Notes: generated by a model from the sequence alone, not told the origin. Positions 4,827 through 25,342 are shown, counted from the first letter of the stretch. The stretch: DNA of 64,000 nt from Verrucomicrobiota bacterium (GCA_027622555.1 JAQBYJ010000005.1:1-64000), one strand, 5' to 3'. Made by a program: numbers and translations.

Positions 4827-4944
4827 GGCGAGCGAGCATTCAAGTTGATTCCTTGAGTGCAATAGTAGGTTCAAGAAATCTCCTCCTGAGACCGTACGGT
4901 CTAGGTTGACGCCTCTTCAAGCATTCCCTCAATATCTAGGGTCC

Positions 4945-6474: not shown

Positions 6475-6481
6475 GGTCCCT

Positions 6482-7951: not shown

Positions 7952-7996
7952 AGTAAGAGAATTGGTTGAATGTAAGAAATCAAGCAGGAGGATTTA

Positions 7997-8605
7997 TCAA
8001 AGCTCCTCAATCGTAATGTCCTTATACCAGGCCTCGGTGGGTTTGCCGCTGTGGATCTGCACGGCGATAATCCCCTCGACCGGAATTTCTTCCACCGGTT
8101 CATTCCAATCCACCGTTTTATGGCCATTGAGCCAGAGTTGAATGTGTCGGCCTTCGCAACGAATCACGTAAGTATTCCAACCATCGTAGTTAATATGCTC
8201 AGACAGCTTTTCAAGGTCCGGACCTTGCAAAACAACACGTCTACGAGATTCGTCATAGAGGGCTCCCCAGTACCGGCCACCCATATCCGCTTGATACCCT
8301 ATCACTTCATGGTGATTGGGAATACGCTCCGTGCGAAACTGAACTCCAGCATTGGGGCTTTCTCCAATTAGTCTGAACTTAAAGCGCAACTCAAAATCAC
8401 CATAGCGTTTCTTAGTGCTGAGAAATTGGTTCTTGGGAATCGCTGTCTCCAAATTACCTCCAACAATAGCTCCATCTTCAATCCGGAAAGATTCGAGGGG
8501 CCCTTCCCAACCGTTGAAAGATTTTCCATCAAATATGCGAACTGGTTTTGCGTTTGCGAGGGACGTAAAGGTAATGACAAAAATTAGGGTAATAAACGTT
8601 TTCAT
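7997..8605 (-). CDS. DUF1080 (3-keto-disaccharide hydrolase-like) secreted protein
   Basis: The 202-residue protein is a single DUF1080 domain behind a signal peptide (MKTFITLIFVITFTSLANA). Family hallmarks are present: FDGKSFNGWEG near residue 25, a YGDFELRFKFRL strand, NAGVQFRTERI, and WNTYVIRCEGRHIQLWLNG followed by GIIAVQIHSG and WYKDI. DUF1080 has a concanavalin-like fold, and some members hydrolyse 3-keto-glycosides. It is the first gene of a probable two-gene unit with the sulfatase at 6482-7951, which suggests joint action on a sulfated glycan. The true substrate is not known. Confidence 0.92.
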   Translation of the reverse strand: MKTFITLIFVITFTSLANAKPVRIFDGKSFNGWEGPLESFRIEDGAIVGGNLETAIPKNQFLSTKKRYGDFELRFKFRLIGESPNAGVQFRTERIPNHHEVIGYQADMGGRYWGALYDESRRRVVLQGPDLEKLSEHINYDGWNTYVIRCEGRHIQLWLNGHKTVDWNEPVEEIPVEGIIAVQIHSGKPTEAWYKDITIEEL

Positions 8606-8695: not shown

Positions 8696-9550
8696 ATGCG
8701 AACAACCACGACTATTATCATAGCTGGACTACTGGCCTTAAAATCGGCCATAGCACAAACTGACTTCATCGAAACGAACGTTCAGGTCGCCCAAAATGTT
8801 GAAGGGAAATTGGTCGTACCAGGTGGAGAAGAGGCGAAACGAGCGATTTTGATTCTCCATGGTTTCAACGATCACATGGATAGTGTCGGTGATTTACATA
8901 AACTAGCTGCTCACGGTCTGGCAAAAGAAGGATTTGGCAGCCTCCGAATCAATTTTCGAGGAGAAGGAATTCGCAATAACAGTGTGATAACTTCGACACT
9001 GGAATCCCGAACCGAAGATGCAGAAAACGCCTACCGTTTTTTGAAGAAACAATTTCCAGAAGCTTCATTTGGAATAACGGGGTGGAGTATGGGTGGCAGC
9101 ACAGCGATTATTCTGATGGGTACCCACCCAAACTGGTTTGAATCGGCCGTATTTTGGTCAAGCGGAGGACACAACTTGAAAGATAAGCTCGCGGTAGGCG
9201 AAACTCCTGAACACAGCGCGATGATAAAAAAAATCCTGTTAGAAGGAAAGGCTGAGAATCAAAGTTGGACGACCATCACCTACACTCGGGAAAACTACGC
9301 AAGCTGGATCGGCTTCGACTCTGCTGATTATTTGGGAAAGTACGAAGGAGCATTTCTAGGCATTCGTGGATCAGATGATTTTTTACCACTCCATGAACCC
9401 GAATGGTTGAAAATCCTTAAAGGCGAGCCCCTGGCTTATCATGTACTGGGAGGCGCTGATCACATATTCAATGTGCTTGACCCACAAAAAAGCCAAGGCG
9501 ATACAGTGGTTAAACTCACATTGGATTGGTTTCAAAACACACTAAAATAA
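8696..9550 (+). CDS. Secreted alpha/beta hydrolase
   Basis: The 284-residue protein has a signal peptide (MRTTTTIIIAGLLALKSAIA) and an alpha/beta-hydrolase fold with the ILHGFNDH oxyanion strand, nucleophile elbow GWSMGG, acid at GSDDF and catalytic His at GGADHIF. The pattern fits serine esterases/acyl hydrolases of the prolyl-oligopeptidase/lysophospholipase-like group. Reaction and substrate cannot be fixed from sequence. It is followed after one base by a small membrane protein (9552), so the two are probably translated together. A role in deacylating extracellular compounds is inferred. Confidence 0.87.
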   Translation: MRTTTTIIIAGLLALKSAIAQTDFIETNVQVAQNVEGKLVVPGGEEAKRAILILHGFNDHMDSVGDLHKLAAHGLAKEGFGSLRINFRGEGIRNNSVITSTLESRTEDAENAYRFLKKQFPEASFGITGWSMGGSTAIILMGTHPNWFESAVFWSSGGHNLKDKLAVGETPEHSAMIKKILLEGKAENQSWTTITYTRENYASWIGFDSADYLGKYEGAFLGIRGSDDFLPLHEPEWLKILKGEPLAYHVLGGADHIFNVLDPQKSQGDTVVKLTLDWFQNTLK

Positions 9551-9551
9551 A

Positions 9552-9866
9552 ATGCAGGATAAAACTTTAAACCGGTTTCGAAAAGTAGCCATCTGGGAAG
9601 GCATTTCCTTCTTGATCCTTCTAGGAATCGCCATGCCAATCAAATACGGCCTGGGAAACCCGATTCCGGTAAAAGTCGTGGGAATGATCCACGGAATTCT
9701 CTTTATCGCGTATGTAATTTTACTAATCCAGGCAGCCATGGAATATGACTGGCCCTTCAAGAAATCTGCCTTGGCTTTTGCCGCCTCCCTAATCCCATTC
9801 GGTCCTTTTCTCTTTGATCGTCGTTTAGCAAAAGAAGCATTAGCCACCGAAGCGTTGGGTCAGTAG
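9552..9866 (+). CDS. DUF3817 small membrane protein
   Basis: A 104-residue protein with three hydrophobic segments and the DUF3817 pattern: FRKVAIWEGISFLILLGIAMP, then KVVGMIHGILFIAYVILL, then the WPFKKSALAFAASLIPFGPF block before a charged tail. DUF3817 proteins are integral inner-membrane proteins of unknown function. It starts one base after the stop of the alpha/beta hydrolase, suggesting translational coupling. No regulatory signal of its own is visible. Confidence 0.85.
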   Translation: MQDKTLNRFRKVAIWEGISFLILLGIAMPIKYGLGNPIPVKVVGMIHGILFIAYVILLIQAAMEYDWPFKKSALAFAASLIPFGPFLFDRRLAKEALATEALGQ

Positions 9867-10726: not shown

Positions 10727-11440
10727 ATGAAAGAGACATTAGGCATATTAGGTGGAATGGGGCCTTTGGCTTCGGCAGAGTTTGTTAAAACTCTATATGA
10801 ATTTAACTTGGTTGATAAGGAGCAATCGGCACCCGCTTGCATTCTCTATTCGGACCCTTCGATTCCAGACAGAACAGAGGCCATCCTGCGTGGTGACACA
10901 AAGAAGGTAATTCAACGTATCCAGACTGGGCTTGAAAACTTAAACAAGCTAGGTGCCACACACTTTGTAATAGCATGTATCTCTTCACATTACTTTATTC
11001 CGAATTTTCCAAAAGAATTCAAAGATTCAATCATTTCGTTGGTAGATATTGCATTAAGGGAGGTTGATGGTTTTCCGGGCAAATGCCTACTGCTGGCAAC
11101 CAACGGAACGATCCGGGCCAAAACATTCCAGAAGCACCCGTTGTGGGAAAATTTGAAAGGGAAACTCTTGATACCCGAAGAAAAGGATCAGGTGAGTATC
11201 CACGAATTCATTTACAAACAAATTAAGCCCAATCGAACGATGGTCAGTGAATCATTTCTCTTATCTTTAATGGAAAAATACGATGTAGATGCTTTTGTTG
11301 CCGGCTGCACCGAATTCCACCTGACGAACAAAAAACTACTTGCTTCCGGCAATCCCTCACTTCGCTTCATTGACCCACTTTATAGCATTGGCAGGGAGTT
11401 CCCGAGTCTCGTGAGGCAACAGGGTGTTAAACAGCGCTAA
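10727..11440 (+). CDS. Aspartate/glutamate racemase-family protein
   Basis: Members interconvert L- and D-amino acids by a cofactor-free two-cysteine mechanism. The 237-residue protein has the N-terminal GILGGMGPLASAEF motif, the substrate-phosphate-like loop SDPSIPDRTEAI near residue 42, a first cysteine in IACISSHYFIP near residue 87 and the second in VAGCTEFHL near residue 190. Both catalytic cysteines are therefore present, but the usual CNTAH after the first is CISSH, so substrate recognition may differ. It is the first gene of an operon: the NRPS starts about 18 bases downstream. The NRPS has no epimerisation domain, so a free D-amino acid supplied by this enzyme is a reasonable inference. 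Confidence 0.88.
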   Translation: MKETLGILGGMGPLASAEFVKTLYEFNLVDKEQSAPACILYSDPSIPDRTEAILRGDTKKVIQRIQTGLENLNKLGATHFVIACISSHYFIPNFPKEFKDSIISLVDIALREVDGFPGKCLLLATNGTIRAKTFQKHPLWENLKGKLLIPEEKDQVSIHEFIYKQIKPNRTMVSESFLLSLMEKYDVDAFVAGCTEFHLTNKKLLASGNPSLRFIDPLYSIGREFPSLVRQQGVKQR

Positions 11441-11458
11441 TAACGTTTGAACATCCGC

Positions 11459-14400
11459 ATGAAAAAGAGTGTCTTGTCTCCAACCAGAGCCTCCACAAAT
11501 TTAGTTGAGCAACTAAACAACACGTTTGCATCCTATTCGAAAAACATCGCGATCGAGACTGATAAAGTCCGAGTTTCGTACGGGCAATTGGAAATCTGGG
11601 TACAGCAGCTTATCCATAAAATCCAACCTGCTCTAACGGATGCGGAGCCTCGAATAGCTGTCCTTTCGGATCATCCGTTGGAATATATTGCGGCAATGCT
11701 TGCAGCATTTCGGTTAGGAGCACTTTACGTCCCAATGGATCCAAGTTTCCCAAAGCTAAGATTTGAACAAATACTCAGCGAAGTAAGACCCACCCTTATT
11801 CTTCTGGGAGATATGGAAAAAACTCCCGACCTTGGCGAAAATTACGAGACGATGGAGATGCCAACTTTTACGGGCGAAACGGAAACCACCTTCGATCCAC
11901 TTCCTGAACGAACTATTTCAGAAGAAGCACCCGCATACCTTTTCTTCACCTCGGGTTCGACCGGAAAACCAAAAGGCATTGTTGGAAAACTTTCCAGTCT
12001 TCGACACTTTTCACAATGGGAAGCCGATGAATTCAATTTAAATAGCGACTCAACCATCAGCCAATTCACAACTCCAACTTTCGATGCATTTTTACGCGAC
12101 GTGATTACGCCATTGAGTATTGGCGGAACCATATGCATCCCTCCGCAACGTCCTGCCATGATGGGCGCTGAAGCACTCTGGGACTGGATAGAGTCCAAGC
12201 AGATTTCATTGATACATTGCGTCCCCTCTCTTTTTTCCGCACTGCTTGAAGGGACTTGGAAAAGCAGGGTCCTTTGCTCCTTAAAGCATATCCTCTTAGC
12301 TGGAGAGGCATTACCACTTAGACAGGCAGAGAATTGGATTAATCATTTCCACCAAAGGATTGAATTGGTCAACCTGTATGGATCGACTGAAACCACAATG
12401 GTGAAGTTGTTCCACCGCATCAGAAAGCGCGATGTGGAGGGCGGCTTTATACCAGTTGGACAGCCCATGTCGGAAACTGAAGTCGTTATTCTCAATGACC
12501 AAAAGCAAATCTGCCAAGTCAATGAAATCGGTGAAATATTTATAGCTACTGCCCATCGAACTCTTGGTTACTTCAATCAACCCGAAGCAACCGCACAAGT
12601 ATTTATAGATAATCCTTACACAACAGACTTAGCCTACGCGACAGGTGATTTGGGAACCGTTCTTCCCGACGGGAACATCCGTTTATTTGGCCGTAAAGAC
12701 CGGCAAGTGAAGGTGGGAGGAGTAAGGATTGAACCGGAAGAGGTTGAAAGTGCGTTACTCAAAATAGTGGCTATCAAAGCTTGCGCAGTCACAGTGAATA
12801 CGCTGGTTGAACATAGAGGAAACCTCATTACCAAAGAAGCGGTTCAAAACACAATCCAATCAGGTAATCCTCAAGCGGGTTTGACCGGGTATTTAGTACT
12901 GAAAGAACAAATCACCATTTCCGAGATCCGTAAGCAACTTGCGGATCATTTACCTTCCGCTGCTATCCCTCGCACCTTCTTTTCCGTCGAAGATCTTCCA
13001 AGAAACACGAATGGGAAAATCGATTATTTCAAGCTTGGCGAAATGAATACGGCCAAAGTCATACGCGATCAAATATTCGAGCCACCCATATCAGAGGTAG
13101 AACGGACCGTCGCAAGGTTGTGGGAATCGGTATTGAATGTACCGACAATCGGTAGACACGACGACTTCTTTACCCTTGGCGGTGATTCTCTTACTGCAAT
13201 GCAGGTCATGAATCGGATGAGAGAATTTTATAACGGCTCAACAAGAATTACAGATTTACTCACCCAACCGTCATTAAAAGATTTCTGTCAAATCGTTGAG
13301 AAACAACAACTCGATCGACCAATAGCACAAAAAGGGAGTTGGGTAAATTTAGACGCAAATTCCGAAACGACCTACCCTTTAACTCCAGCGCAAAAAGGGT
13401 TATGGTTCCTCTGGAAAATGGATCCGGAAAGCCCTTACTACACATGCCAAGGCATCATACATATTAAAGGTAGATTTGACGAGAACGCCCTCCAGGAATC
13501 CTGGAGCCTATTGCAGCAACGCCACGATATATTGAGAGTTCGCTTTGGTAATGTATCCGGTTCACCGACACAGCACTTCGTTAACAACTCAGAACCCTGG
13601 GTATTGGGACCCAAAGTAGATCATCTGGAAGGAAAGGAGGCGGTTCAAAAGATCAGAGATTTAGCTAAAAAAGAGGCCCAAACAGCATTCAACCTGGAAG
13701 ACGATAGTTTACTCCGGGTCAAACTATACAAAATCGGAGCTGATCACCATGCCTTGCAGTTGACCATGCATGAAATCACCATCGACCTTTGGGGTATTAG
13801 AATCCTGCTCAATGACCTCGCGGCCTTATATGAGCAAGCGCTCAACAAGCATCAATTGCTGCTTGAATCCAAGGGTCCCAGTTTCAGGCAATTTCTTCTC
13901 TGGCAGGATTCACACAAGCGTTCAGGCAGCTTGGACGAAACCTATTGGAAATCCGAGCTGAGTGGACAACTCCCGGTTTTGAATTTGCCACTTGATCGTC
14001 CTCGATCTCCAAAGCCAAATTATCAGGGGAAAACAATACATTGCCTATTGGATGAAGAGCTAACGGAGAAATTGAAGTCCCTGAGCCAGGAACAAGGAAA
14101 TACCTTATATGTCACACTTTTAGCCGGTTTCTTTTGGACTCTTCACCGATACTCGGGACAAGAGGACATTATTGTAGGTAGTCCAATTGCCCAAAGAAAT
14201 CAGGCCGAAAGCGAAGACTTAATAGGATTCTTTTTAAACATGCTTCCCATTAGGCTAACGGTGAAACCTCATCAATCGGTCAGACATTTTATCAGTTCGA
14301 TAAGAAAAAAAGTAAACGGTGCCATAGAAGCATCCGAATACTCATTCACCAACATGCTGGAATGGGCTCAATCCGTCAGAGACACAAGTATATCTCCGGT

Positions 14401-17311
14401 ATTTCAGGTCATGTTTAACATGCTAAGCTACACAGATCGAAAACTGGAGTTCAGCGATTTCTCTCTCGGTTATGAAAGTCTGGAAACAGGACATACCAAG
14501 TATGATTTTTCAATGTATGCCCAAGAGTACGGAGGAAAATTATTTCTTCAAATCGCCTACCAAACAGAGCTCTTCGATGAAAGCACCATGCAAAGATTCC
14601 TCAAAAATCTGGAAACTTTCTATCGCTCCATAGTTGAAGGAATTGATCCCCCCTTGAATGAAATCGAATCTTTGCACCCTACCGAGAAGAAGCAGTTAAT
14701 GACAATCGCCAAGGGGCCGACCATGGAAATCGCTGACGACCGTTCCTTAATCACAATTTTTCAGGACCAGGTTGGATTAATTCCTAACGCTACTGCTTTG
14801 ATTCACCAGGGTAAGGTGCTCAGCTACAGTGAGCTCAACACATTGACTGACCAACTTGCCCGAGTGCTCGCCCATTCGGGCAACACTTTTGAAACGCCAG
14901 TTGCAATCTCACAAACTCGATCCTTCCATATGGTTGCTGCCATTTTGGCAGTAATGAAAATGGGAGCCACCTACGTGTATCTTGATCCTCAATACCCAGA
15001 AGCAAGGAACCGCGCCATGCTTGAAGATATAGACCCCAGCCTCCTCATTGCCGACGAACCTGAAGCATTTGAAAAATACGAAAAGAAAATTATCCCATGG
15101 GGCGAGAGGCTGGAGATTCATTACGCAGAAGGCGACAAATCAGTCGATGTAGTTCCTAAAAGAAATGACTTGTTCAGCATTGTTTACACCTCAGCATCGA
15201 CCGGAAGACCGAAAGGAGTTCAGGTAAGAGAGCGTGCAGTTCTAAATCGACTTCAATGGATGTGGGAAGCACACCCATTCTCTGACATCGATGTAATGCT
15301 CCTTCAAAAATCACTAAGTCTTGTTGCTTCTTCATGGGAGTGTTTGGGCGGACTGTTAGCTGGAGTTCCAACCGTGATTGCAGATCATGATACCGTCATA
15401 GATCCCGCAGCCTTGGCCTCCCTATGTAATCAACAAAATGTAACCCGAATCTACGGATCACCAGCCCTGTTCGCGGGAGTCATGGCTCAAAGAAAAAAGT
15501 CTCCAGGTAACTTCATTTCACTCAAACTTGCTTTTAGCAGTGCAGAACCCATCTCACCCTCACAAGTGCAAGAGTGGAGTGTACTTTTCCCATCCATTCC
15601 ATTATTTAATTTGTACGGTTCGTCAGAATGTTCATCCAACGCTTTGTCCTATGATTGCAGCCATTTCGACCCTGGTTCCACAAGAGTGCCGATTGGGAAA
15701 CCGCTGCCAAACATCAATACCTTTGTTCTGGATAAAGATCTTCGACTCGTCCCCAAGGGTGCCGCCGGCGAGTTATGCATTAGCGGAACTTGCTTGGCAG
15801 CTGGTTATCAAAACTTGCCTAAGGAAACTGAAGAAAAATTTATCCAGGTGAACCCTGATCGATTTGGTGGACCTGTTCTATATAAAACCGGCGACCTGGT
15901 ACGCCTGGGACAAAATAACCAATTGGAATACCTTGGGAGAAATGATTTTCAAATTAAGATTCGAGGTTTCCGGATTGAACTGGAAGAAGTAGAAAATTGT
16001 TTAGCTTCAATCCCAGAAATTGAAGCATGCGTTGTTTGCGTAGATTCCTCTATCCCGGAGGAACCCAAAATGATCGCCTTCGTTCAATGCGACAATGCTA
16101 CCATTGAGAAGGACCTAAGACAAACGCTTAGGAAGCAATTGCCCGATTATATGATACCCAGTCAGTTTGTGTTCCTCCCCAATCTTCCCCGTACAGCAAG
16201 CGGGAAAATTGATAGAAGCTCACTCAAAACACCTTCAGCCCAGGACCTAAACACGAATTCTCCTGAAACAGCAGATATCGGATCCCTAGAATCCAGCATG
16301 GCACTTTTATGGCGACAACATTTGGCAAATCCAAATCTCGGTGTTGATGATAACTTCTTCGATCTGGGTGGACATTCCCTTCTGGCCGCAAAATTATTTT
16401 CTGAAATAGAAAAATTGACCGGTAAAGCATTCCCGTTGAGCGCATTATACCGCGCACCAACAATCCGTGAGTTATGTCGATTGTTGGAAGAGGATGGTCT
16501 GACGAATCTTTGGAGTTCATTAGTTCCCATGAACCAAGGAACATCCAAGCCTCCATTATTCTGTTTGCCGCCATGGGGCGGCAGCGCCTATTTTTTTAGA
16601 TACCTGACGAAATACCTGAATAAAGACCAACCTTTTTATACCTTGGAATCATGTCATAATCAGGAACGTGAAACAACGTCCGAGACATTGAATGAATTGA
16701 TTCAGAAAAATTTCGACGAAATCATGTCTTTTTATCCTGAAGGCCCGCTGTTTCTATGCGGATTTTCAGGAGGTGGAGTTATTGCCTGGGAACTTGCAAA
16801 CCGACTCACAGCTCACGGACGTACGGTAGACAATGTGATCCTGTTCGACACCTCATATCCGAGACACACACCCAATTTCATTCGAAAAATGAATTCCGCA
16901 GAAAGGTATAAATCCAAGGCCCGAGGGTTGGTTTATTCAATCCGCCGGCTGAACGGATGGCACAAACTTTGGTTTCTAATTGAGACAGTTTTTATGAAAG
17001 TAAAGTGGCACTTAATTCCTCAAACGAGTGAGCAGAAAGAGGCGATTGAACAGGAAGTAAATTCAATGGAAACGAAGCGGTCTTTCTTCACGAATTATTC
17101 AGCCTCAAATTACGCAGGAAAAGTAACCATATTTAAAGCCAAAGAACGCCGCCTGGAGACCCTGTCGGATCCAACATTGGGATGGTCGGAACACACTGAA
17201 CGTGAAATCGAATTATGCGAAGTACCCGGTAGTCACAACACCATGTTGATCGATCCTAATGGAGAAACACTTTGTATGAGATTACAGACACTCCTGACTA
17301 AACACGGTTAA
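11459..17311 (+). CDS. Two-module nonribosomal peptide synthetase (A-T-C-A-T-TE)
   Basis: This 1950-residue synthetase would activate two monomers and release a dipeptide-like product. Domain order by eye: A1 (about 30-530; FTSGSTGKPKG, YGSTET, NGKID), T1 (GGDSL, Ser577), C (about 635-1070; TPAQKGLWFL, RHDILRVRF), A2 (about 1100-1590; TSASTGRPKG, KTGDLVRLG, SGKIDR), T2 (GGHSL, Ser1640), and a type I thioesterase with Ser1770 (GFSGG), Asp1797 and His1926 (GSHNTM). Oddities: the C-domain HHxxxDG motif reads HEITIDL (771-777), losing the second catalytic His, and the A2 position equivalent to GrsA Asp235 is Val1289, while A1 keeps Asp. By-eye specificity positions are D-A-R-S-L-A-L-M-V for A1 and V-A-W-A-A-S-L-S-N for A2. 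A TTG at 11447 could add four residues. The product is unknown. Confidence 0.95.
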   Translation: MKKSVLSPTRASTNLVEQLNNTFASYSKNIAIETDKVRVSYGQLEIWVQQLIHKIQPALTDAEPRIAVLSDHPLEYIAAMLAAFRLGALYVPMDPSFPKLRFEQILSEVRPTLILLGDMEKTPDLGENYETMEMPTFTGETETTFDPLPERTISEEAPAYLFFTSGSTGKPKGIVGKLSSLRHFSQWEADEFNLNSDSTISQFTTPTFDAFLRDVITPLSIGGTICIPPQRPAMMGAEALWDWIESKQISLIHCVPSLFSALLEGTWKSRVLCSLKHILLAGEALPLRQAENWINHFHQRIELVNLYGSTETTMVKLFHRIRKRDVEGGFIPVGQPMSETEVVILNDQKQICQVNEIGEIFIATAHRTLGYFNQPEATAQVFIDNPYTTDLAYATGDLGTVLPDGNIRLFGRKDRQVKVGGVRIEPEEVESALLKIVAIKACAVTVNTLVEHRGNLITKEAVQNTIQSGNPQAGLTGYLVLKEQITISEIRKQLADHLPSAAIPRTFFSVEDLPRNTNGKIDYFKLGEMNTAKVIRDQIFEPPISEVERTVARLWESVLNVPTIGRHDDFFTLGGDSLTAMQVMNRMREFYNGSTRITDLLTQPSLKDFCQIVEKQQLDRPIAQKGSWVNLDANSETTYPLTPAQKGLWFLWKMDPESPYYTCQGIIHIKGRFDENALQESWSLLQQRHDILRVRFGNVSGSPTQHFVNNSEPWVLGPKVDHLEGKEAVQKIRDLAKKEAQTAFNLEDDSLLRVKLYKIGADHHALQLTMHEITIDLWGIRILLNDLAALYEQALNKHQLLLESKGPSFRQFLLWQDSHKRSGSLDETYWKSELSGQLPVLNLPLDRPRSPKPNYQGKTIHCLLDEELTEKLKSLSQEQGNTLYVTLLAGFFWTLHRYSGQEDIIVGSPIAQRNQAESEDLIGFFLNMLPIRLTVKPHQSVRHFISSIRKKVNGAIEASEYSFTNMLEWAQSVRDTSISPVFQVMFNMLSYTDRKLEFSDFSLGYESLETGHTKYDFSMYAQEYGGKLFLQIAYQTELFDESTMQRFLKNLETFYRSIVEGIDPPLNEIESLHPTEKKQLMTIAKGPTMEIADDRSLITIFQDQVGLIPNATALIHQGKVLSYSELNTLTDQLARVLAHSGNTFETPVAISQTRSFHMVAAILAVMKMGATYVYLDPQYPEARNRAMLEDIDPSLLIADEPEAFEKYEKKIIPWGERLEIHYAEGDKSVDVVPKRNDLFSIVYTSASTGRPKGVQVRERAVLNRLQWMWEAHPFSDIDVMLLQKSLSLVASSWECLGGLLAGVPTVIADHDTVIDPAALASLCNQQNVTRIYGSPALFAGVMAQRKKSPGNFISLKLAFSSAEPISPSQVQEWSVLFPSIPLFNLYGSSECSSNALSYDCSHFDPGSTRVPIGKPLPNINTFVLDKDLRLVPKGAAGELCISGTCLAAGYQNLPKETEEKFIQVNPDRFGGPVLYKTGDLVRLGQNNQLEYLGRNDFQIKIRGFRIELEEVENCLASIPEIEACVVCVDSSIPEEPKMIAFVQCDNATIEKDLRQTLRKQLPDYMIPSQFVFLPNLPRTASGKIDRSSLKTPSAQDLNTNSPETADIGSLESSMALLWRQHLANPNLGVDDNFFDLGGHSLLAAKLFSEIEKLTGKAFPLSALYRAPTIRELCRLLEEDGLTNLWSSLVPMNQGTSKPPLFCLPPWGGSAYFFRYLTKYLNKDQPFYTLESCHNQERETTSETLNELIQKNFDEIMSFYPEGPLFLCGFSGGGVIAWELANRLTAHGRTVDNVILFDTSYPRHTPNFIRKMNSAERYKSKARGLVYSIRRLNGWHKLWFLIETVFMKVKWHLIPQTSEQKEAIEQEVNSMETKRSFFTNYSASNYAGKVTIFKAKERRLETLSDPTLGWSEHTEREIELCEVPGSHNTMLIDPNGETLCMRLQTLLTKHG

Positions 17312-17329
17312 ACCGATTTCCACCGATTC

Positions 17330-17896
17330 ATGAATAAGAAACAAGTCAGACTACTCTTCGCGTTGTTACTCGGAATTTTATCCGTTGTGTTCTTGCTTTC
17401 CATGAACAAAATTGAACCCTACCCTGCCCCGGTCTATCCGTCATTTGGGAAAGCACCTATAAAAGAAGAAGTCATCCAAATCAATAAACCAGAGTTCGTG
17501 GTTTATTTTGAGAATTCAGATTCTCAGGAAGTGGACTATTTTAAATTGTTCAACAACATCCCGATTTCGCATGTAAATCACTTGGTAGTTAATAATTTAA
17601 ATCCAGAGCGCAAAGTGGATCTGGAGCGTTGGCAGGCTAAGCCATTCAAGAGTTTTCAATTAGGACGATACACCATCGAGTGGAGACGAACGCCGAATTT
17701 GCCAACAAAAGAGGAAATTGCTCGAAGAAAACAATTCTTTCGAAATCGGATAACCGAGACAACCGGGAGACAAGACCCAGTGAACCTCCACATTACTTGG
17801 TACCGCTATGACTTCGTATTTGGGAAAGGAATCGTTTGGGAAAGTAAACGGCAAGTATACGAGACGGAAATCAACCTTGTAGACGAAAGTATATAA
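17330..17896 (+). CDS. Membrane-anchored protein of unknown family, paired with HTTM protein
   Basis: I do not recognise the family. The 188-residue protein has one N-terminal transmembrane segment (LLFALLLGILSVVFLLSM, residues 9-26) after a short basic cytoplasmic end, so the remaining 160 residues should lie outside the cytoplasm. The outer part has Pro-rich and beta-strand-like stretches (EFVVYFENSD, YTIEWRRTP, NLHITWYRYDF) and a charged helix. It follows the NRPS by 18 bases and is followed by the HTTM gene after one base, so it belongs to the same operon. The arrangement of a small anchored protein just before an HTTM protein resembles SdpA-SdpB, but sequence similarity to SdpA is not evident. 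Confidence 0.75.
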   Translation: MNKKQVRLLFALLLGILSVVFLLSMNKIEPYPAPVYPSFGKAPIKEEVIQINKPEFVVYFENSDSQEVDYFKLFNNIPISHVNHLVVNNLNPERKVDLERWQAKPFKSFQLGRYTIEWRRTPNLPTKEEIARRKQFFRNRITETTGRQDPVNLHITWYRYDFVFGKGIVWESKRQVYETEINLVDESI

Positions 17897-17897
17897 A

Positions 17898-19016
17898 ATG
17901 ATCTCGTCCATTTTTTCACGGTTTGATCGGTGGTTATTTGAGAGTTACTCAATGACGCCAAAACATTGGGGGCTCTTCAGGATATCATTTGCGGTATACA
18001 TGTTGGCCTTTGTCGGGCTTCCGGAACTCACCTACCTTTCCGAATTACCTGACGATTTTTTTCACCCTCACCAATTTAGTCTCGGTCAATTTGCACCCGG
18101 GTTTCCAGGATACCTTTTTCTCAAAGTTCTAGGTCTCATCATCGTGTTCCTTTTCCTGTGTATCTTGTTTGGCTACAGAACTCGAACGGCATCTATTGTT
18201 TCCGTAGTGTTGGTCATTTTCGCCAAGACCTTTGTATATTCCTTGGGACAAATAAACCACGACTTCATAGTCTGGTTGGTTCCAGTCGCAGGCGCTTTTG
18301 CAAATTGGGGTGCGGCATATTCGATAGATAGTTCAAATAAGCAATCCTTTGGAAAGGAAGAGAGTCAGTCTTGGCCCATCGTTTTTCTCGTAGTAACTTT
18401 CTGTTTCGCCATGGCACTTTCTGGATATCAAAAATTCCTGGGAGGCTGGGCTGATTTGTATGCAAACCCGGTACAACAAAATCTGGCGCGAATGTTTATT
18501 GTTGTTCAAAGACAAGACTTCCTGGCTCCCGCTTTAAACACCTTCGACAACTTCTTTTTATGGAAAGCCCTCGATTATCTAACTCTCATTTTTGAGATTG
18601 GAATCCTTATCGGCATATTTTTCCCAAAGATATTCCGTCTATTTTTGATGGTAGCCGTTGTCTTCCATCTTTCGAACCTACTGATTCTGAACATAGACTT
18701 TTCCTTCAATTTTGCCTTCTACGCCCTCTTCTTGCCGTGGCCAAGAATTTGTAACTGGATCGACCGTTCAAAGGACATCCATTTTCTAATGGCGCGATTT
18801 CTAACTTTAAAATGTTTTGTTTTAGTCAGCTTCCTTTATTTGATATTTTTCGCGGCGACAGAGTCATCATTGGTCATTTTCAGCTTCAATCTTTTGGGCA
18901 TCGAATATTTAGGAAATGCGATGGTGCGATCCTTACTTGGATTTGGTATCGTAATTTGGATCGCTGTGGATCATTTGAAACAGCGAAAAGGGGCTTTTCT
19001 CCCAACCACATTTTAG
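17898..19016 (+). CDS. HTTM (vitamin K-dependent gamma-carboxylase-like) membrane protein
   Basis: The 372-residue protein has about eight hydrophobic segments. Its N-terminal pattern is typical of the HTTM superfamily (gamma-carboxylase N-terminal region, SdpB): a SMTPKHWGLFRISFAVYML segment, then DDFFHPHQFS, FGYRTRTASIVSVVLV and SLGQINHDFIVW. In SdpB-like systems such proteins act in maturing or exporting an antimicrobial peptide; in others the role is unknown. It starts one base after the preceding anchored protein and closes the racemase-NRPS operon. A task in modifying, exporting or resisting the NRPS product is inferred. It lacks the long C-terminal lumenal domain of true gamma-carboxylases. 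Confidence 0.82.
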   Translation: MISSIFSRFDRWLFESYSMTPKHWGLFRISFAVYMLAFVGLPELTYLSELPDDFFHPHQFSLGQFAPGFPGYLFLKVLGLIIVFLFLCILFGYRTRTASIVSVVLVIFAKTFVYSLGQINHDFIVWLVPVAGAFANWGAAYSIDSSNKQSFGKEESQSWPIVFLVVTFCFAMALSGYQKFLGGWADLYANPVQQNLARMFIVVQRQDFLAPALNTFDNFFLWKALDYLTLIFEIGILIGIFFPKIFRLFLMVAVVFHLSNLLILNIDFSFNFAFYALFLPWPRICNWIDRSKDIHFLMARFLTLKCFVLVSFLYLIFFAATESSLVIFSFNLLGIEYLGNAMVRSLLGFGIVIWIAVDHLKQRKGAFLPTTF

Positions 19017-19542: not shown

Positions 19543-19818
19543 ATGATAAAACCTAGAGAAAAACAGAACTCCGTTGAGCTGTATTTCATGGAAGCCCGCT
19601 CAAAGTTGATCGACATAGCGGCCTTTATGGACCGGATAGAGCGTGACGGACTCACCGACGATTTTAGATATCAAGCATTTTTGGACGCCTTAAAGCAGCT
19701 GGATTCAACCACGCGTGCCGAGGCAGTCTTACTTGCTCTAAGCGACCCAACCGAAGAACCTATCCAGGTCGCCACAACCAAAGCCGCAACCGGAGCTTGG
19801 CCCGAAAAACCTAGATGA
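19543..19818 (+). CDS. Small helical protein opening the ebo-type cluster
   Basis: The 91-residue protein is predicted mostly helical (VELYFMEARSKLIDIAAFMD, then RYQAFLDALKQLDS, TRAEAVLLALSD) with a Pro/Thr-rich tail. It overlaps the TatD-type gene by four bases (ATGA), so translation is coupled. In described ebo clusters the first gene is eboA, usually a longer protein of over 200 residues. This one occupies that position but I cannot show homology to EboA. No catalytic motif is visible; an adaptor or scaffold role for the cluster is a guess. Confidence 0.7.
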   Translation: MIKPREKQNSVELYFMEARSKLIDIAAFMDRIERDGLTDDFRYQAFLDALKQLDSTTRAEAVLLALSDPTEEPIQVATTKAATGAWPEKPR

Positions 19819-20621
19819 GATATATAGAACCACACGCCCATATGGTGAGCCGGACCACCGACGATTACATGTCCATGGTGGTGGCTGGATGCAAAGCCGT
19901 TTGCGAACCTGCTTTCTGGGCAGGATTCGATCGGAGCTCGGTCAACGGGTTTTACGACTACTTTTGCCAGCTTACCGATTACGAACCAAAACGAGCTGCC
20001 AAATTCAAACTGCCTCATTTCTCCTGGCTCTGCATCAATCCCAAGGAAGCCGAAGACCTGGTGTTAGCCCGGGAAGTGATAGCGATGATACCTGATTTCT
20101 TAGGCCGTGAAAATGTGTTGGGCATAGGTGAAATTGGCTTGAATAAAAACAGCCGCAACGAACTTACCATTTTGGAGGAGCACGTGAATCTCGCAGCAGA
20201 GCATAAGCAGCTCATTCTCGTTCACACCCCTCACCTGGAAGATAAACTCAAGGGGACCAAACTGATTGTTGATTTGATCAAAAACGACTCCCGTATTGAT
20301 CCTGGAAAAGTGCTGATCGACCATGTGGAGGAACATACCGTCAAATACGTCATGGACGCGGGCATGTGGGGTGGACTCACTCTGTACCCAGAATCCAAGT
20401 GCACCTCTCCCCGAGCCATCGATATTCTTGAAAACTTTGGAGGAGACCGACTCTGGATGAACTCAGCATGCGATTGGGGAATAAGTGTGCCGTTGGCGGT
20501 ACCTTATGCAGCCCAGGAAATGCGCCGTCGCGGTTACGATGATGAAATACTTGACCAGGTATTTTTCAAGAACCCGGTATCCTTTTTAAGTCAGTGTCCG
20601 AACTTTACGGTTCGAGGATGA
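19815..20621 (+). CDS. eboB: TatD-family metal-dependent hydrolase, EboB-like
   Basis: This 268-residue TIM-barrel hydrolase keeps the TatD metal-ligand pattern: PHAHM (His-x-His) near residue 7, GIGEIGLN (Glu) near 111, a VHTPHLED histidine near 137, LIDHVEEH near 165 and the Asp in NSACDWG near 213. In ebo clusters this protein (EboB) is one of six conserved genes believed to handle or traffic precursors of secondary metabolites toward the periplasm; its own reaction is not known. It starts within the end of the small gene before it and is followed after 57 bases by eboE. The ebo assignment rests mainly on the neighbours. Confidence 0.85.
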   Translation: MRYIEPHAHMVSRTTDDYMSMVVAGCKAVCEPAFWAGFDRSSVNGFYDYFCQLTDYEPKRAAKFKLPHFSWLCINPKEAEDLVLAREVIAMIPDFLGRENVLGIGEIGLNKNSRNELTILEEHVNLAAEHKQLILVHTPHLEDKLKGTKLIVDLIKNDSRIDPGKVLIDHVEEHTVKYVMDAGMWGGLTLYPESKCTSPRAIDILENFGGDRLWMNSACDWGISVPLAVPYAAQEMRRRGYDDEILDQVFFKNPVSFLSQCPNFTVRG

Positions 20622-20678
20622 TTCGAAAACATCCAAGTGGTTGATTGAAAACGTAGCTGTCTGATCTATTCCCAAAAT

Positions 20679-21854
20679 ATGCATTTAGCCAATAATAGTC
20701 ACCTAGCGTATTGCACCAATATTCACCGGGGAAGCTCTTGGGCCGAGACCATCGACTCGCTTGATAAGTTTGCTCTTTCAGTAAGAGATCAAGTGTCGCC
20801 AGATCGCGAATACGCTATTGGCTTAAGACTCGGGGCATCTGCGGCAAAGGAATTGTCAGACCCAGTGACCCTGCTAGGGTTTCAACGGTGGCTGGAGAAA
20901 AACAATTGTTACGTTTTTACGATTAATGGGTTTCCTTACGGCAACTTTCACGGCACCAGAGTTAAGGACCAAGTCTACAGACCCGATTGGACATCTCCAG
21001 ACCGTCTGGAATACACAAACCTGCTCTTTGATCTTCTTTGCGAAATCCTACCAGCTGGCATGGAAGGCAGTGTAAGTACCCTGCCCGGTTCGTTCAAACG
21101 CTTCATTACCACTCAGGAACAAAAGACAGCCATCTTCGACAACCTGATCTCCAACGCTGAACATATTGGCAAACTCAGCGAATCAAAAGGCCACGACTTA
21201 CACCTCGGATTGGAACCGGAACCACTGGGTTATTTTGAAACCAGCCAGGAGTCGGTAGATTTTTTTGATCAATTACTGAACCATGCTCCCGACAAGAAAG
21301 ATCTGCTCCTTGGCCACCTGGGAATTAATTATGATACCTGCCACCTGGCAGTTGAGTATGAAACGGCTGATGAATCGTTACGACGCCTTGTGGAACAGGA
21401 TATAAGAATCAGCAAGATCCACTTGAGTTCCGCCTTAAAAGTTGCCGATTTCTCAAAAAATACCTTAACAGCCCTAAGCGGGTTTTGTGAAGAAACGTAT
21501 CTACACCAGGTGATTGCACGAACGGGAAATGAACCGCTCGTACGATACGAAGATCTCGACCTGGCGCTCGACGCCCGCGCAGCTGGCCAAGATAGGGCAG
21601 ATGAATGGCGCATCCATTTTCATATCCCTATTCACGCAGAGCCGCAAAAACCACTGTACTCAACCAGCGACCACATTTTGGGTACTCTGGACTTTCTTAA
21701 GGAAAAGCCGGAAGTCTGCCGTCATTTTGAAATGGAAACCTACACTTGGGAGGTTTTGCCCGGTAATTTAGGTAAAACCAATGTGGTCGACCAGTTAGTC
21801 AGAGAGTATGAGTGGACGTTTGCGGAGTTTAATGCGCGTGGACTAGGCTGCTAA
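20679..21854 (+). CDS. eboE: EboE, xylose-isomerase-like TIM-barrel metabolite traffic protein
   Basis: The 391-residue protein resembles the sugar isomerase/AP endonuclease 2 TIM-barrel family and carries the features of EboE: an N-terminal LAYCTNIHRG, then RLGASAAKELSD, FTINGFPYGNFHG and later HLGLEPEPLGYFET with NYDTCHLAVEYE and KIHLSSAL. The Glu, Asp/His and His in these motifs could bind a metal. EboE is a core member of ebo clusters found in cyanobacteria, algae symbionts and several bacterial phyla; the reaction is unknown. It lies between the TatD-like and UbiA-like genes, so gene order here is B-E-C-D-F. Confidence 0.88.
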   Translation: MHLANNSHLAYCTNIHRGSSWAETIDSLDKFALSVRDQVSPDREYAIGLRLGASAAKELSDPVTLLGFQRWLEKNNCYVFTINGFPYGNFHGTRVKDQVYRPDWTSPDRLEYTNLLFDLLCEILPAGMEGSVSTLPGSFKRFITTQEQKTAIFDNLISNAEHIGKLSESKGHDLHLGLEPEPLGYFETSQESVDFFDQLLNHAPDKKDLLLGHLGINYDTCHLAVEYETADESLRRLVEQDIRISKIHLSSALKVADFSKNTLTALSGFCEETYLHQVIARTGNEPLVRYEDLDLALDARAAGQDRADEWRIHFHIPIHAEPQKPLYSTSDHILGTLDFLKEKPEVCRHFEMETYTWEVLPGNLGKTNVVDQLVREYEWTFAEFNARGLGC

Positions 21855-21946
21855 CTTGCCGAATAATACAATTATAGAAGCACTTTCAGGCTAAGTAGGA
21901 AAAATGTTCTCGCTCGTTTCGCGAAAGTTAATTTCCCCTTACTACA

Positions 21947-22807
21947 ATGACTGATTTCCGATCATGGCTGGTTTTGGGCCGCGTATCCAACTTATCGACT
22001 GTTTGGTCCAATGCGCTTTGCGCCTGGATTTTGGGAGGAGGAGGAAACCATCAGACAATTGCCTGGCTTTTGGTTGGGCTAAGCCTCCTCTACGTTGGAG
22101 GCATGTATCTGAACGATTTCTTTGACGTATCGTTCGACAATAAATTCCGACCTGAGCGTCCAATCCCGGCCGGAAAGGTCAAACGCTCGACCGTTCTCAT
22201 TGCCGCTATTTCCATGTTCGGCATAGGTATGGGCTGCCTCTCGATGGGTGGACAACATGCGCTACTTTTTGGACTCCTTCTGCTCGGGCTAATCGTAGTT
22301 TACAATATTGTTCATAAACATACGGTCTTGGGGGTTCCGCTCATGGCAGCCTGCCGGATGGGAATTTACCTCACGGTTGGGGCCGCCTCCGTTACGGGAG
22401 TCACACCTTCGATCTGGGGTGCTGGATTTCTCATGTTTCTTTACGTGCTTGGCATTACCGCTTTAGCCAGAAACGAATCGAATTCAGTCTCGGGTTCTGC
22501 CGTAGGATCTGCATTTCTGATCTGCCCATTAATCGGAGTTATCTATCTGGCAGGGCCTCCTTACATTCCAGTCTTTCCGGTTTTCTTGTTAATACTCACT
22601 CTTTGGATGGCACGCACTTTTTCAAATGCCCGAGCGACCGGGGAATTTATCGTAGGAAAAACGATCGGACCTCTTTTGGCCGGAATTTGTCTAATGGACT
22701 TGGCAATCCTCTCGAGTATGCATCTAGTGACTCTTCCCATTCTGGGACTCCTGCTTGCATTTTTCGTCATAGCGTTAATTGCTCAGCGTCGCATCCCAGC
22801 TACCTAA
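21947..22807 (+). CDS. eboC: UbiA-family prenyltransferase, EboC
   Basis: An integral membrane protein of 286 residues with about eight hydrophobic helices. The first UbiA aspartate motif is present as NDFFDVSFDNKFRPERPIP near residue 56, which binds Mg-pyrophosphate of a prenyl donor. The second Asp-rich motif expected in the later half is not obvious; the matching place reads ARNESNSVSG. EboC is thought to prenylate or lipidate a cluster substrate in the inner membrane. The gene starts 92 bases after eboE and ends 10 bases before eboD. The acceptor molecule is unknown. Confidence 0.9.
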   Translation: MTDFRSWLVLGRVSNLSTVWSNALCAWILGGGGNHQTIAWLLVGLSLLYVGGMYLNDFFDVSFDNKFRPERPIPAGKVKRSTVLIAAISMFGIGMGCLSMGGQHALLFGLLLLGLIVVYNIVHKHTVLGVPLMAACRMGIYLTVGAASVTGVTPSIWGAGFLMFLYVLGITALARNESNSVSGSAVGSAFLICPLIGVIYLAGPPYIPVFPVFLLILTLWMARTFSNARATGEFIVGKTIGPLLAGICLMDLAILSSMHLVTLPILGLLLAFFVIALIAQRRIPAT

Positions 22808-22817
22808 TCGATTCCTC

Positions 22818-23978
22818 ATGCCCGAATATTTACCGATAGAATATCCGATTCAGATCCCTTACCAACTGAGGGTATATTTTACAAAGGGTGTCTTTGATAC
22901 TGCAAATCCGCTGTTTCGAGATTTGTCCTGCTCCAGAGAGAGTGGAATTCGCAGGAAGGTCCTAATCTATATAGACGAAGCGGTCAGCCAGTCCAACCCC
23001 GACCTCCAGAGTCAAATCGAAGCGTATTTCAACCACCATGAAAACGATTTGCGTCTGATGGGGGCCCATGTCCTGAAGGGCGGGGAATCGTTAAAGAATG
23101 ATCCCAACGTGATTGACCGGATCTATGCAGATATTGAGGACAATCGTATTTGCCGACATAGCTTCGTTGCAGCGATTGGAGGCGGTGCCTTGTTGGATAC
23201 GGTCGGATTTGCAGCTTCGACTGCCCATCGGGGAATCCGCCACCTGCGTTTGCCAACGACCACTTTGGGTCAAGCCGATGCGGGCGTAGGAGTAAAAAAT
23301 GGTGTGAACTTCAATCAGAAGAAAAATTTTGTGGGGGCATTCGCTCCGCCATTTGCTGTCATAAATGACTTTAGGTTCCTTTCCTCATTGCCTGCCGTTC
23401 ACATGAGAAACGGCTACATTGAAGCGATCAAGGTGGCTTTGATTCGAGATGCGGAATTCTTTCGTTGGATTGAAAGCAATGTGGAAGCGTTGAAGCATTT
23501 TGAAAACGCTGCGATGGAAGAGCTCATTTACCGGTGCGCGAAACATCACGTGGCGTTCATTGCCACTTCAGGTGATCCTTTCGAAATGGGTTCGGTCCGG
23601 CCATTGGATTTTGGCCATTGGGCCGCTCACAAGCTGGAGCAGCTTTCGGACTTTGCGTTAAGTCACGGAGAAGCTGTCGCCATTGGAATCGCCATAGATA
23701 CCCTTTACTCTGAGCAAAAAGGCTACCTTAGCTCAGAAAACGCTGCCCGTATTTTAAACCTGCTTAAGCAGTTGGATTTCGAGACCTACTCGGACTACCT
23801 GGAGAAGACAAATGGCAATCGCTTCCCTTATGTGTTGGAAGGGCTGGAAGAATTCCGCGAACACCTGGGAGGTCAGTTAACCATAACTCTGCTCAAGCAT
23901 GTTGGCTCACGATTTGAAGTTCACGAAATCGACAGCGAAGTCGTTCTCAAGGTCATCCAACGCTTAAAGAACTTATGA
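22818..23978 (+). CDS. eboD: 3-dehydroquinate synthase-like protein, EboD
   Basis: The 386-residue protein belongs to the sugar-phosphate cyclase family. It has the NAD-binding GGGALLDTVGFAASTAHRG segment, LPTTTLGQADAGVGVKNGVN, and metal ligands in NGYIEAIKVALIRD (Glu), DFGHWAAHKLE and LSHGEAVAIG (His). This retained set suggests a working cyclase, probably on a sugar phosphate other than DAHP since core shikimate genes are absent here. The ATG at 22818 is chosen because it gives the normal N-terminus (MPEYLPIEYP) and starts just after eboC; an upstream frame opening at 22779 would overlap eboC. It overlaps eboF by four bases. Confidence 0.92.
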   Translation: MPEYLPIEYPIQIPYQLRVYFTKGVFDTANPLFRDLSCSRESGIRRKVLIYIDEAVSQSNPDLQSQIEAYFNHHENDLRLMGAHVLKGGESLKNDPNVIDRIYADIEDNRICRHSFVAAIGGGALLDTVGFAASTAHRGIRHLRLPTTTLGQADAGVGVKNGVNFNQKKNFVGAFAPPFAVINDFRFLSSLPAVHMRNGYIEAIKVALIRDAEFFRWIESNVEALKHFENAAMEELIYRCAKHHVAFIATSGDPFEMGSVRPLDFGHWAAHKLEQLSDFALSHGEAVAIGIAIDTLYSEQKGYLSSENAARILNLLKQLDFETYSDYLEKTNGNRFPYVLEGLEEFREHLGGQLTITLLKHVGSRFEVHEIDSEVVLKVIQRLKNL

Positions 23979-25342
23979 AGCGGACCGCGGTCATCAATGT
24001 CGTTGGCTTAACCGCCGGATTATTGGGTGACCACACGCCTTGTATCAACGCATTGGCGAAGCGCGGAAACCTAACATCTTTCAAGCCATCGTTTCCCGCC
24101 GTCACCTGCACGGCTCAATCCGATTTCCTTACCGGTAAGAACGCCTCCGAACATGGGGTGGTAGCCAATGGTTGGTATAATCGCGACTATAGCGAAGTTC
24201 ATTTTTGGAAACAGTCCAATCACTTGGTTAAAGGACCAAAACTTTGGGATGAGCTCCGAGACGAAGCCCCGGGTTTCACATGTGCAAAAATGTTCTGGTG
24301 GTATAATATGTATTCGACGGTCGACTTCAGTGTAACGCCGCGGCCTATGTATCCGGCAGACGGCCGGAAATTTTTCGATGTTTATACTCACCCTATGGGG
24401 ATGAAGGAGGAGATGAAAAGAGATTTGGGCGAATTTCCTTTCCATACCTTTTGGGGACCCAAGGCAGGCATTGAATCGTCCCAATGGATAGCCGCTTCGG
24501 CCAAATGGATCGAAGAAAAGGAGCAACCCACTCTCAATTTGGTTTATCTTCCGCACCTTGATTACAATCTGCAACGTTTGGGATCGAAAGATCCTGCTAT
24601 CTCCAAAGATTTGTCCGCCATCGATACGCTGGTGGGAGAATTGTTCACATTCTTCGAAAGCAAATCGATTCAAGTGGTTTTACTTTCGGAATATGGAATC
24701 ACCTCCGTTGATAACCCCATACACATTAATCGCGCCCTTCGCAAAAAAGGTTGGCTGACTATCAAACCAGAATTGGGGCTTGAACAGCTCGACTACGGTG
24801 CCAGTGAAGCTTTCGCCGTCGCAGATCATCAGGTAGCTCATGTCTATGTAAAAAACAAAGAGCTCCTCAATGATGTTAAACAAACGCTTGAATCTCTTGA
24901 GGGCATTGATCGGGTACTTGATGAAGAAGGAAAGGCGGAGTTCGGAATTCATCACGAACGCTCGGGCGACCTGATCGCAATCGCTGACAGCAAGTCCTGG
25001 TTTACCTATTACTACTGGCTCGATGATGATGTAGCCCCGGATTTTGCGCGCTGCGTGGATATACACCGGAAACCTGGCTATGATCCTGTCGAACTCTTCC
25101 TAGACCCAACCATTCGTCTCCCTTTCTTGAAAATCGCATGGTTCCTGCTTAAGAAAAAACTGGGCTTCCGCGCACTGTTGGACGTCATCCCACTGGATGC
25201 AAATTTGGTGAAAGGATCGCATGGCAGAATTCCCGAGGATGAAAACGATTGGCCGCTAATCATAAGCGAAGCATCCAATGCGGAAGTGCACTGTTCAACA
25301 GACGTTTATAATCAGCTTCGAACCATTATTCTAGGAAACTAG
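23975..25342 (+). CDS. eboF: Alkaline phosphatase-superfamily phosphodiesterase, EboF
   Basis: A 455-residue hydrolase of the nucleotide pyrophosphatase/phosphodiesterase branch. It has the nucleophile threonine in FPAVTCTAQSDFLTGK near residue 36 and metal ligands in LPHLDYN near 192, LLSEYGIT near 236, DHQVAHVY and GSHGRIP near 409. It begins directly with a NVVGLTAG motif, in which the usual metal-binding Asp after the first strand (as in VIDGL) reads VGL, a possible loss of one ligand. In ebo clusters EboF is the last conserved member. It overlaps eboD by ATGA and is convergent with the DUF1080 gene 6 bases away. It could remove a phosphate or pyrophosphate from the traffic intermediate; this is inferred. 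Confidence 0.88.
   Translation: MKRTAVINVVGLTAGLLGDHTPCINALAKRGNLTSFKPSFPAVTCTAQSDFLTGKNASEHGVVANGWYNRDYSEVHFWKQSNHLVKGPKLWDELRDEAPGFTCAKMFWWYNMYSTVDFSVTPRPMYPADGRKFFDVYTHPMGMKEEMKRDLGEFPFHTFWGPKAGIESSQWIAASAKWIEEKEQPTLNLVYLPHLDYNLQRLGSKDPAISKDLSAIDTLVGELFTFFESKSIQVVLLSEYGITSVDNPIHINRALRKKGWLTIKPELGLEQLDYGASEAFAVADHQVAHVYVKNKELLNDVKQTLESLEGIDRVLDEEGKAEFGIHHERSGDLIAIADSKSWFTYYYWLDDDVAPDFARCVDIHRKPGYDPVELFLDPTIRLPFLKIAWFLLKKKLGFRALLDVIPLDANLVKGSHGRIPEDENDWPLIISEASNAEVHCSTDVYNQLRTIILGN

What the first reader, a model, noticed from the sequence alone, without database searches (positions are those of the whole stretch)
10727..19016. Compact operon: racemase, two-module NRPS, anchored protein and HTTM protein
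Seen: four genes on one strand with gaps of about 18, 18 and 1 bases. Known: Asp/Glu racemases make D-amino acids, type I TE-bearing NRPSs release peptides, and HTTM proteins such as SdpB act in peptide toxin maturation. Inference: the operon makes a small peptide, probably with a D-residue, that is handled at the membrane by the last two proteins. The combination is unfamiliar to me.
Basis: partly seen in the sequence, partly recalled or inferred. Interest (0 to 1): 0.75.

Follow-up and report, generated by a model that had tools for sequence, protein, structure and literature searches.

The report
D-aspartate peptide operon with membrane pair
A four-gene bacterial operon appears to make mirror-image aspartate, join it to a second building block to form a very small peptide, and pass that to a two-protein membrane unit whose core is distantly related to vitamin K-dependent carboxylase; this combination has not, to my knowledge, been described and can be tested directly.

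Summary
The four genes are real, with gaps of 18, 18 and 1 bases. They recur in the same slot in one other genome of the genus, split across two contig ends, and a third genome has a deletion scar there. The window is from an Opitutales genome (Verrucomicrobiota).

The racemase's closest solved relative is McyF, the microcystin aspartate racemase. The first NRPS A domain has the code DARHLALMVK. Its nearest plasmid relatives include two Actinomycete A-PCP enzymes (DARHLALMTK, DARHASLMTK), each in a cluster with an Asp/Glu-type racemase. D-Asp as starter is therefore well supported. The condensation motif HHxxxDG reads HEITIDL, and one of those Actinomycete clusters also has HExxxD. The second A domain lacks Asp235, which suggests an unusual second unit.

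The small anchored protein and the HTTM protein form a separable pair, found without an NRPS elsewhere in this genome, in a sister genome and in Rhodococcus. SdpA/SdpB models do not match. The HTTM protein keeps a His-Lys pair 58 residues apart, the spacing of essential His160 and Lys218 in human carboxylase.

Best reading: a D-Asp-initiated dipeptide pathway with a split, carboxylase-like membrane enzyme. The assembly half is well supported; the chemistry at the membrane is inferred.

The parts
10727..11440 (+). McyF-like aspartate racemase; catalytic Cys84 and Cys194 present
   Evidence: TIGR00035 above cut-off; best PDB match McyF 5wxx, E 1e-51, 179 bits, next 1jfl 90 bits; both McyF cysteines aligned
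11459..17311 (+). Dimodular NRPS, A-PCP-C-A-PCP-TE (in-frame TTG at 11447 is an alternative start)
   Evidence: Pfam/NCBIfam; start agrees with the G002 orthologue
11504..13066 (+). A1 domain, specificity code DARHLALMVK (predicted D-Asp), no C domain in front: loading module
   Evidence: alignment of A domains; code identical in G002 and nearly identical in racemase-linked Actinomycete A-PCPs
13769..13789 (+). C-domain active-site motif HEITIDL in place of HHxxxDG (catalytic second His is Glu, codon GAA)
   Evidence: alignment to Txo2/Txo1 LTMHHIVSDGWS; codons; HELLADT in the Streptomyces L062 C protein
14759..16207 (+). A2 domain, code VAWYFSLSNK; Asp235 replaced by Val, so probably not a standard alpha-amino acid
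   Evidence: alignments to LgrA and among A domains
16550..17251 (+). Type I thioesterase domain; GFSGG serine (aa 1774) and GSHNT histidine present
   Evidence: Pfam Thioesterase 86.8 bits; motif positions
17330..17896 (+). Small anchored protein (one N-terminal TM helix, EPYPxxxxP motif, alpha/beta ectodomain); partner of the HTTM protein
   Evidence: no Pfam/NCBIfam match; TM segment aa 6-24; homologues G002, G000:C18, G002:C511 and Rhodococcus
17898..19016 (+). HTTM (VKGC-superfamily) membrane protein; His121 and Lys179 58 residues apart
   Evidence: PF05090 above cut-off; spacing; K179, W184, E233, F256-H257 invariant in 7 relatives
19543..25342 (+). Neighbouring ebo operon (eboA, B, E, C, D, F); possible exporter, but not dependent on the NRPS operon
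   Evidence: EboE NF035939 452.8 bits; eboB present in genus genomes with and without the NRPS operon; periplasmic export role in Nostoc (PMC6282210)

Best explanation
The operon makes a D-aspartate-initiated dipeptide (or very small peptide) that is finished at the membrane. (1) The McyF-like racemase makes D-Asp from L-Asp. (2) A1 of the NRPS activates D-Asp and loads it on PCP1. (3) A C domain with an unusual HExxxD active site joins it to the unit loaded by A2, which is probably not a standard alpha-amino acid. (4) The TE domain releases the product. (5) The anchored small protein and the HTTM protein work as one two-subunit membrane enzyme of the vitamin K-dependent carboxylase (VKGC) superfamily, HTTM carrying the His/Lys catalytic pair and the small protein supplying an extracytoplasmic domain, and modify or deliver the product there. 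Shown by sequence: operon, domains, motifs, codes, racemase kinship, the pair as a separable module. Inferred: substrates, product, and step 5 as a whole.
For: Racemase: McyF is by far the best solved relative and both catalytic cysteines are kept; McyF acts as an Asp racemase (PMC2885083). A1: code DARHLALMVK in window and G002; the best plasmid A1 relatives include A-PCP enzymes in clusters with an Asp/Glu racemase in Kitasatospora (asnB-racemase-A-PCP, DARHLALMTK) and Streptomyces (asnB-A-PCP-C-racemase, DARHASLMTK). C domain: HE for HH is a two-base codon change, is shared with the C protein of the Streptomyces cluster, and a natural HQxxxDM C domain works with beta-lysine (PMC11546977). 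Two phosphopantetheinyl transferase-type genes are in the genome. Operon inherited and lost as a block. Pair: small+HTTM adjacency repeats at G000:C18 and G002:C511 and in Rhodococcus with the same EPYP motif; HTTM His121-Lys179 spacing 58, as for His160/Lys218 reported essential in human carboxylase (PMC9146348).
Against: No product is known. A codes predict substrates only loosely, and the microcystin D-Asp/D-Glu codes I compare with are from memory. The C-domain motif could mean an inactive domain. The pair exists without an NRPS, so it may have its own substrate. HTTM is too far from human carboxylase for sequence search to align them (no PDB match), so the His/Lys match rests on spacing and motif. 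The HTTM structure model was unusable (pLDDT 42). The middle of the G002 NRPS is missing, so the HE motif and A2 code rest on one genome.
Confidence: 0.5

Rival explanations
1. Sdp-like system: the last two proteins are an SdpA/SdpB-type maturation pair, and the NRPS product or an unseen ribosomal peptide is a secreted toxin they process.
For: Same gene order (small protein, then HTTM) as sdpA-sdpB; the sdpABC-type operons of B. subtilis make secreted toxins (PMC6818787); HTTM proteins also sit in linaridin clusters (PMC9927463).
Against: TIGR04034/TIGR04033 give no hit even at E = 10, and no SdpA is found in 388 phylum genomes; no SdpC-like gene among the operon's four genes. The B. subtilis sequences themselves could not be compared.
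Confidence: 0.15
2. The small/HTTM pair is a passenger or general membrane unit that merely shares the transcript and does not act on the NRPS product.
For: Stand-alone pairs beside MscS in G000 and G002, near DUF393 in Rhodococcus, and related HTTM proteins with an upstream membrane protein in other class genomes; Actinomycete racemase/DARH clusters have no HTTM in the stretches read.
Against: Gaps of 18 and 1 bases and the same order in two genomes; in G005 the racemase, NRPS, small gene and half of HTTM are all gone together.
Confidence: 0.25
3. The C domain is dead and the NRPS only loads and releases single units (for example free D-Asp derivatives), with no dipeptide.
For: Second His of HHxxxDG replaced by Glu and Gly by Leu.
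Against: The role of the second His varies and its mutation does not always abolish activity (PMC11546977); the same HExxxD occurs in an independent D-Asp-type cluster; A2, PCP2 and TE motifs are intact.
Confidence: 0.15
4. The neighbouring ebo operon is the export route and belongs to the same pathway.
For: Directly downstream on the same strand; ebo genes move a scytonemin precursor to the periplasm in Nostoc (PMC6282210).
Against: ebo is present in all five other genus genomes searched, including those without the NRPS operon; about 520 bases and, in G002, a convergent gene separate the two.
Confidence: 0.1

Closest known systems
Microcystin pathway: McyF racemase and the D-Asp/D-MeAsp-activating module of McyB
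   Same: Asp racemase of the McyF kind coupled to an NRPS A domain with a DARH-type code (the McyB code is recalled from memory)
   Different: Two modules only, D-Asp at the start, no PKS; membrane pair in the operon; A1 overall not close to the solved McyB fragment
Actinomycete asnB-racemase-A-PCP clusters (Kitasatospora NBC_00039, Streptomyces NBC_01216 plasmids), uncharacterised as far as I know
   Same: A-PCP with DARH code in the same cluster as an Asp/Glu racemase; HExxxD C domain in Streptomyces
   Different: asnB present, separate subunits, no HTTM/small pair seen
Malonomycin pathway with the VKDC-like enzyme (Law et al. 2018, Nat. Catal.; title seen in the references of PMC11310079, content from memory)
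   Different: Here HTTM is short and its partner domain is a separate protein; no PKS
SdpA-SdpB (TIGR04034/TIGR04033)
   Same: Small protein plus HTTM-type protein in tandem
   Different: No model match; TM-anchored small protein; NRPS instead of SdpC
Vitamin K-dependent gamma-carboxylase (GGCX)
   Same: HTTM domain; His/Lys at 58-residue spacing
   Different: No fused lumenal domain, no detectable overall sequence similarity in PDB search

Membership tests
McyF-type aspartate racemase | Closest to McyF among solved racemases | tested here: met
   E 1e-51 versus 1e-24 for the next
McyF-type aspartate racemase | Two catalytic cysteines | tested here: met
   C84 and C194 aligned with the McyF cysteines
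McyF-type aspartate racemase | Racemises Asp, not Glu | not testable with these tools
   needs an enzyme assay
Type I NRPS | A, PCP, C and TE domains with intact core motifs | tested here: inconclusive
   All domains present; PCP and TE motifs intact; C3 motif is HEITIDL
D-Asp/D-Glu type A domain | Arg239 and His278 in the code, racemase in the cluster | tested here: met
   DARH in window, G002, Kitasatospora and Streptomyces, racemase in each cluster; the reference microcystin codes themselves are from memory
HTTM (PF05090) | Model score above curated cut-off | tested here: met
   32.4 versus 27.7 bits
SdpA/SdpB pair | Match to TIGR04034 / TIGR04033 | tested here: not met
   no hit at E <= 10
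SdpA/SdpB pair | Accompanying SdpC-like precursor | tested here: not met
   no such gene among the four operon genes; flanking genes are a cytochrome c and ebo
Vitamin K-dependent carboxylase | Catalytic Lys and assisting His in the TM domain | tested here: inconclusive
   H121/K179 at spacing 58; K invariant in 7 close HTTM relatives, Arg in some distant ones; no direct alignment to GGCX obtained
Vitamin K-dependent carboxylase | Vitamin K-dependent CO2 addition | not testable with these tools
   needs an enzyme assay

The most novel reading that the evidence does not exclude
The last two genes encode a split vitamin K-dependent carboxylase-like enzyme, with the catalytic membrane domain and the extracytoplasmic domain as separate proteins, that carboxylates the D-Asp residue of a nonribosomal dipeptide to a malonate-type residue.
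Probability: 0.18. Interest if true: 0.85.

Novelty: new variant of a known kind. Interest (0 to 1): 0.6.

Why it matters
HTTM proteins are widespread in bacteria and mostly of unknown function. This operon ties one to a defined, small and predictable NRPS substrate (D-Asp), which makes its chemistry testable. It also exposes a small-protein/HTTM two-gene module, seen in Verrucomicrobiota and Rhodococcus, and a C-domain active-site variant (HExxxD) that accompanies a D-Asp-type loading module in two phyla. If the carboxylase reading is right, it would add to the malonomycin precedent and show a split form of the enzyme.

Tried and rejected
SdpA/SdpB membership: tested with NCBIfam models on window, paralogues and distant pairs, no match. 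Kinship of the window's small protein with the membrane protein upstream of distant HTTM genes (L053, L055, L056): hhalign not significant (prob 0.3%), so only gene position and the YP motif link them; the HTTM halves are related (E 5e-11; 4e-14). AlphaFold model of HTTM: pLDDT 42, discarded; small protein pLDDT 64, no PDB fold match at E <= 0.001. HTTM against PDB sequences: nothing. Published codes for McyB/McyE were not found in the paper library. L-L or D-L type of the C domain: nearest solved relatives are Txo2/Txo1, not decisive. A related-locus scan of bacterial genome contigs added only two G002 contigs and the G005 contig. G114's small gene carries two in-frame stops, so that pair may be decayed and was not used as evidence of function.

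Full report
OBSERVATION. The window holds four + strand genes: racemase 10727-11440, NRPS 11459-17311, a 188-aa protein 17330-17896 and an HTTM protein 17898-19016. Pfam and NCBIfam give racemase, A-PCP-C-A-PCP-TE, no family, and HTTM. The window belongs to a 6.0-Mb genome of 238 contigs. Same-genus relatives G002 and G005 correspond to public records JAPUIL01 (Verrucomicrobia bacterium) and CALJGU01 (uncultured Opitutales bacterium).

CONSERVATION. In G002 one contig ends with DUF3817 - racemase (68%) - NRPS (59% to aa 751), and another starts inside the small gene and continues with HTTM (61%) and the ebo operon. The pieces fit the same order as in the window; about 3.7 kb between them is not in the assembly. 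G001 (one contig), G003 and G004 have no operon in that slot. G005 has an antisense cytochrome c gene cut at aa 90 that runs directly into HTTM aa 155, which I read as one deletion that removed the racemase, NRPS, small gene and half of HTTM. A small tree of ebo proteins puts G005 and G001 together. So the operon was present before these species parted and was lost more than once, or was gained early in the genus. Outside the genus, the McyF-like racemase is absent at E <= 1e-20 from 334 sampled class genomes, and this HTTM type is rare (6 of 383).

ASSEMBLY LINE. The racemase's best solved relative is McyF (E 1e-51), well ahead of other aspartate racemases, with both catalytic cysteines aligned. 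McyF is described as acting exclusively as an Asp racemase in microcystin synthesis (PMC2885083). The A1 code, read from alignments to LgrA and among homologues, is DARHLALMVK, identical in G002. From memory, the McyB D-methyl-Asp code is DARHVGIFVK. An independent test: among plasmid records, the top A1 relative lies in a Streptomyces cluster asnB - A-PCP (DARHASLMTK) - C protein - racemase, and the third-listed lies in a Kitasatospora cluster asnB - racemase - A-PCP (DARHLALMTK), whose racemase is also the top plasmid hit for the window racemase. The second- and fourth-listed A1 relatives (DVRHFALMAK) show no racemase within the stretch read. So A-domain type and racemase recur together in another phylum. 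The A2 code VAWYFSLSNK lacks Asp235, the residue that holds the alpha-amino group in standard A domains (general knowledge), which points to an unusual second unit.

CONDENSATION DOMAIN. Against Txo1/Txo2 the motif LTMHHIVSDGWS becomes LTMHEITIDLWG: the second, often catalytic, His is Glu (GAA, two bases away from a His codon). The Streptomyces C protein that accompanies the DARH A-PCP reads VVHELLADTRSW at the equivalent place, whereas canonical HH motifs were found in other NRPS loci of the order. The equivalent Kitasatospora stretch reads VDRERADAW, so the HE form is not universal. A review notes that the second His is not always essential and that a natural HQxxxDM domain works with beta-lysine (PMC11546977). 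An adapted rather than dead domain is my preferred reading, not a proven one.

MEMBRANE PAIR. A second small+HTTM pair lies at G000:C18 and G002:C511 beside an MscS-type gene, with no NRPS next to it (18-26% identity). Rhodococcus plasmid pDK1 has a 168-aa protein with the same EPYPxxxxPxFG stretch directly before its HTTM gene, and a DUF393 gene before that. More distant HTTM genes in the class also follow a membrane protein with a YPF/YPY motif, but profile comparison of the small proteins is not significant. Across seven HTTM proteins K179, W184, E233, R247 and F256-H257 are invariant; H121 and K179 are 58 residues apart. In human carboxylase Lys218 is the active-site base and His160 is also essential (PMC9146348), the same spacing. 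HTTM is the domain shared with that enzyme (PMC5343777). No direct alignment to the human enzyme was possible, so this is a motif-level argument. SdpA and SdpB models do not match.

MECHANISM. Most likely D-Asp is made, loaded, joined to an unusual second unit, released by TE, and handled by the small/HTTM pair at the membrane. What the pair does is open; carboxylation of the Asp residue is the most specific hypothesis, with the malonomycin pathway (Law et al. 2018; title seen in reference lists of PMC11310079 and PMC10676414; content from memory) as precedent.

LIMITS. Two genomes carry the operon and one of them incompletely. Specificity codes are predictions. No structure supports the pair.

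Noticed in passing
window 19543-25342: Complete ebo operon (eboA, B, E, C, D, F) directly downstream; kept in genus genomes that lack the NRPS operon.
   Followed up: partly
L013 9485-11096 (G000:C18) and L012 2597-4202 (G002:C511): Second small-protein/HTTM pair beside an MscS-type gene, found only in the two genomes that also have the NRPS operon.
   Followed up: partly
L011 8015-8828: Deletion scar in G005: antisense cytochrome c gene truncated at aa 90 fused to HTTM from aa 155.
   Followed up: yes
L061 12019-16426 and L062 7102-13794: Actinomycete plasmid clusters asnB/racemase/A-PCP with DARH code; the L062 C protein also has an N-terminal region that looks amidotransferase-like, fused to a HExxxD C domain.
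   Followed up: partly
L065 5109-6939: Rhodococcus pDK1: DUF393 (DCC thiol oxidoreductase) - small EPYP protein - HTTM, an overlapping gene trio.
   Followed up: partly
L054 772-2358: 529-aa HTTM-like protein with a C-terminal extension carrying a YPFTNVPMYC motif, possibly the partner domain fused in one chain; weak LMF1 match.
   Followed up: no
L035 about 9197-9697: Small-protein gene of G114 reads with two in-frame TAA codons before an apparently intact but shorter HTTM gene.
   Followed up: no
window 27049-30489: 1146-aa protein that by eye looks like an MFS transporter, acyltransferase and acyl-CoA ligase in one chain (LplT-Aas-like).
   Followed up: no
window 4906-8605: Two convergent sulfatase-like genes and a DUF1080-like gene; this upstream block is largely kept in genus genomes with and without the operon.
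   Followed up: no
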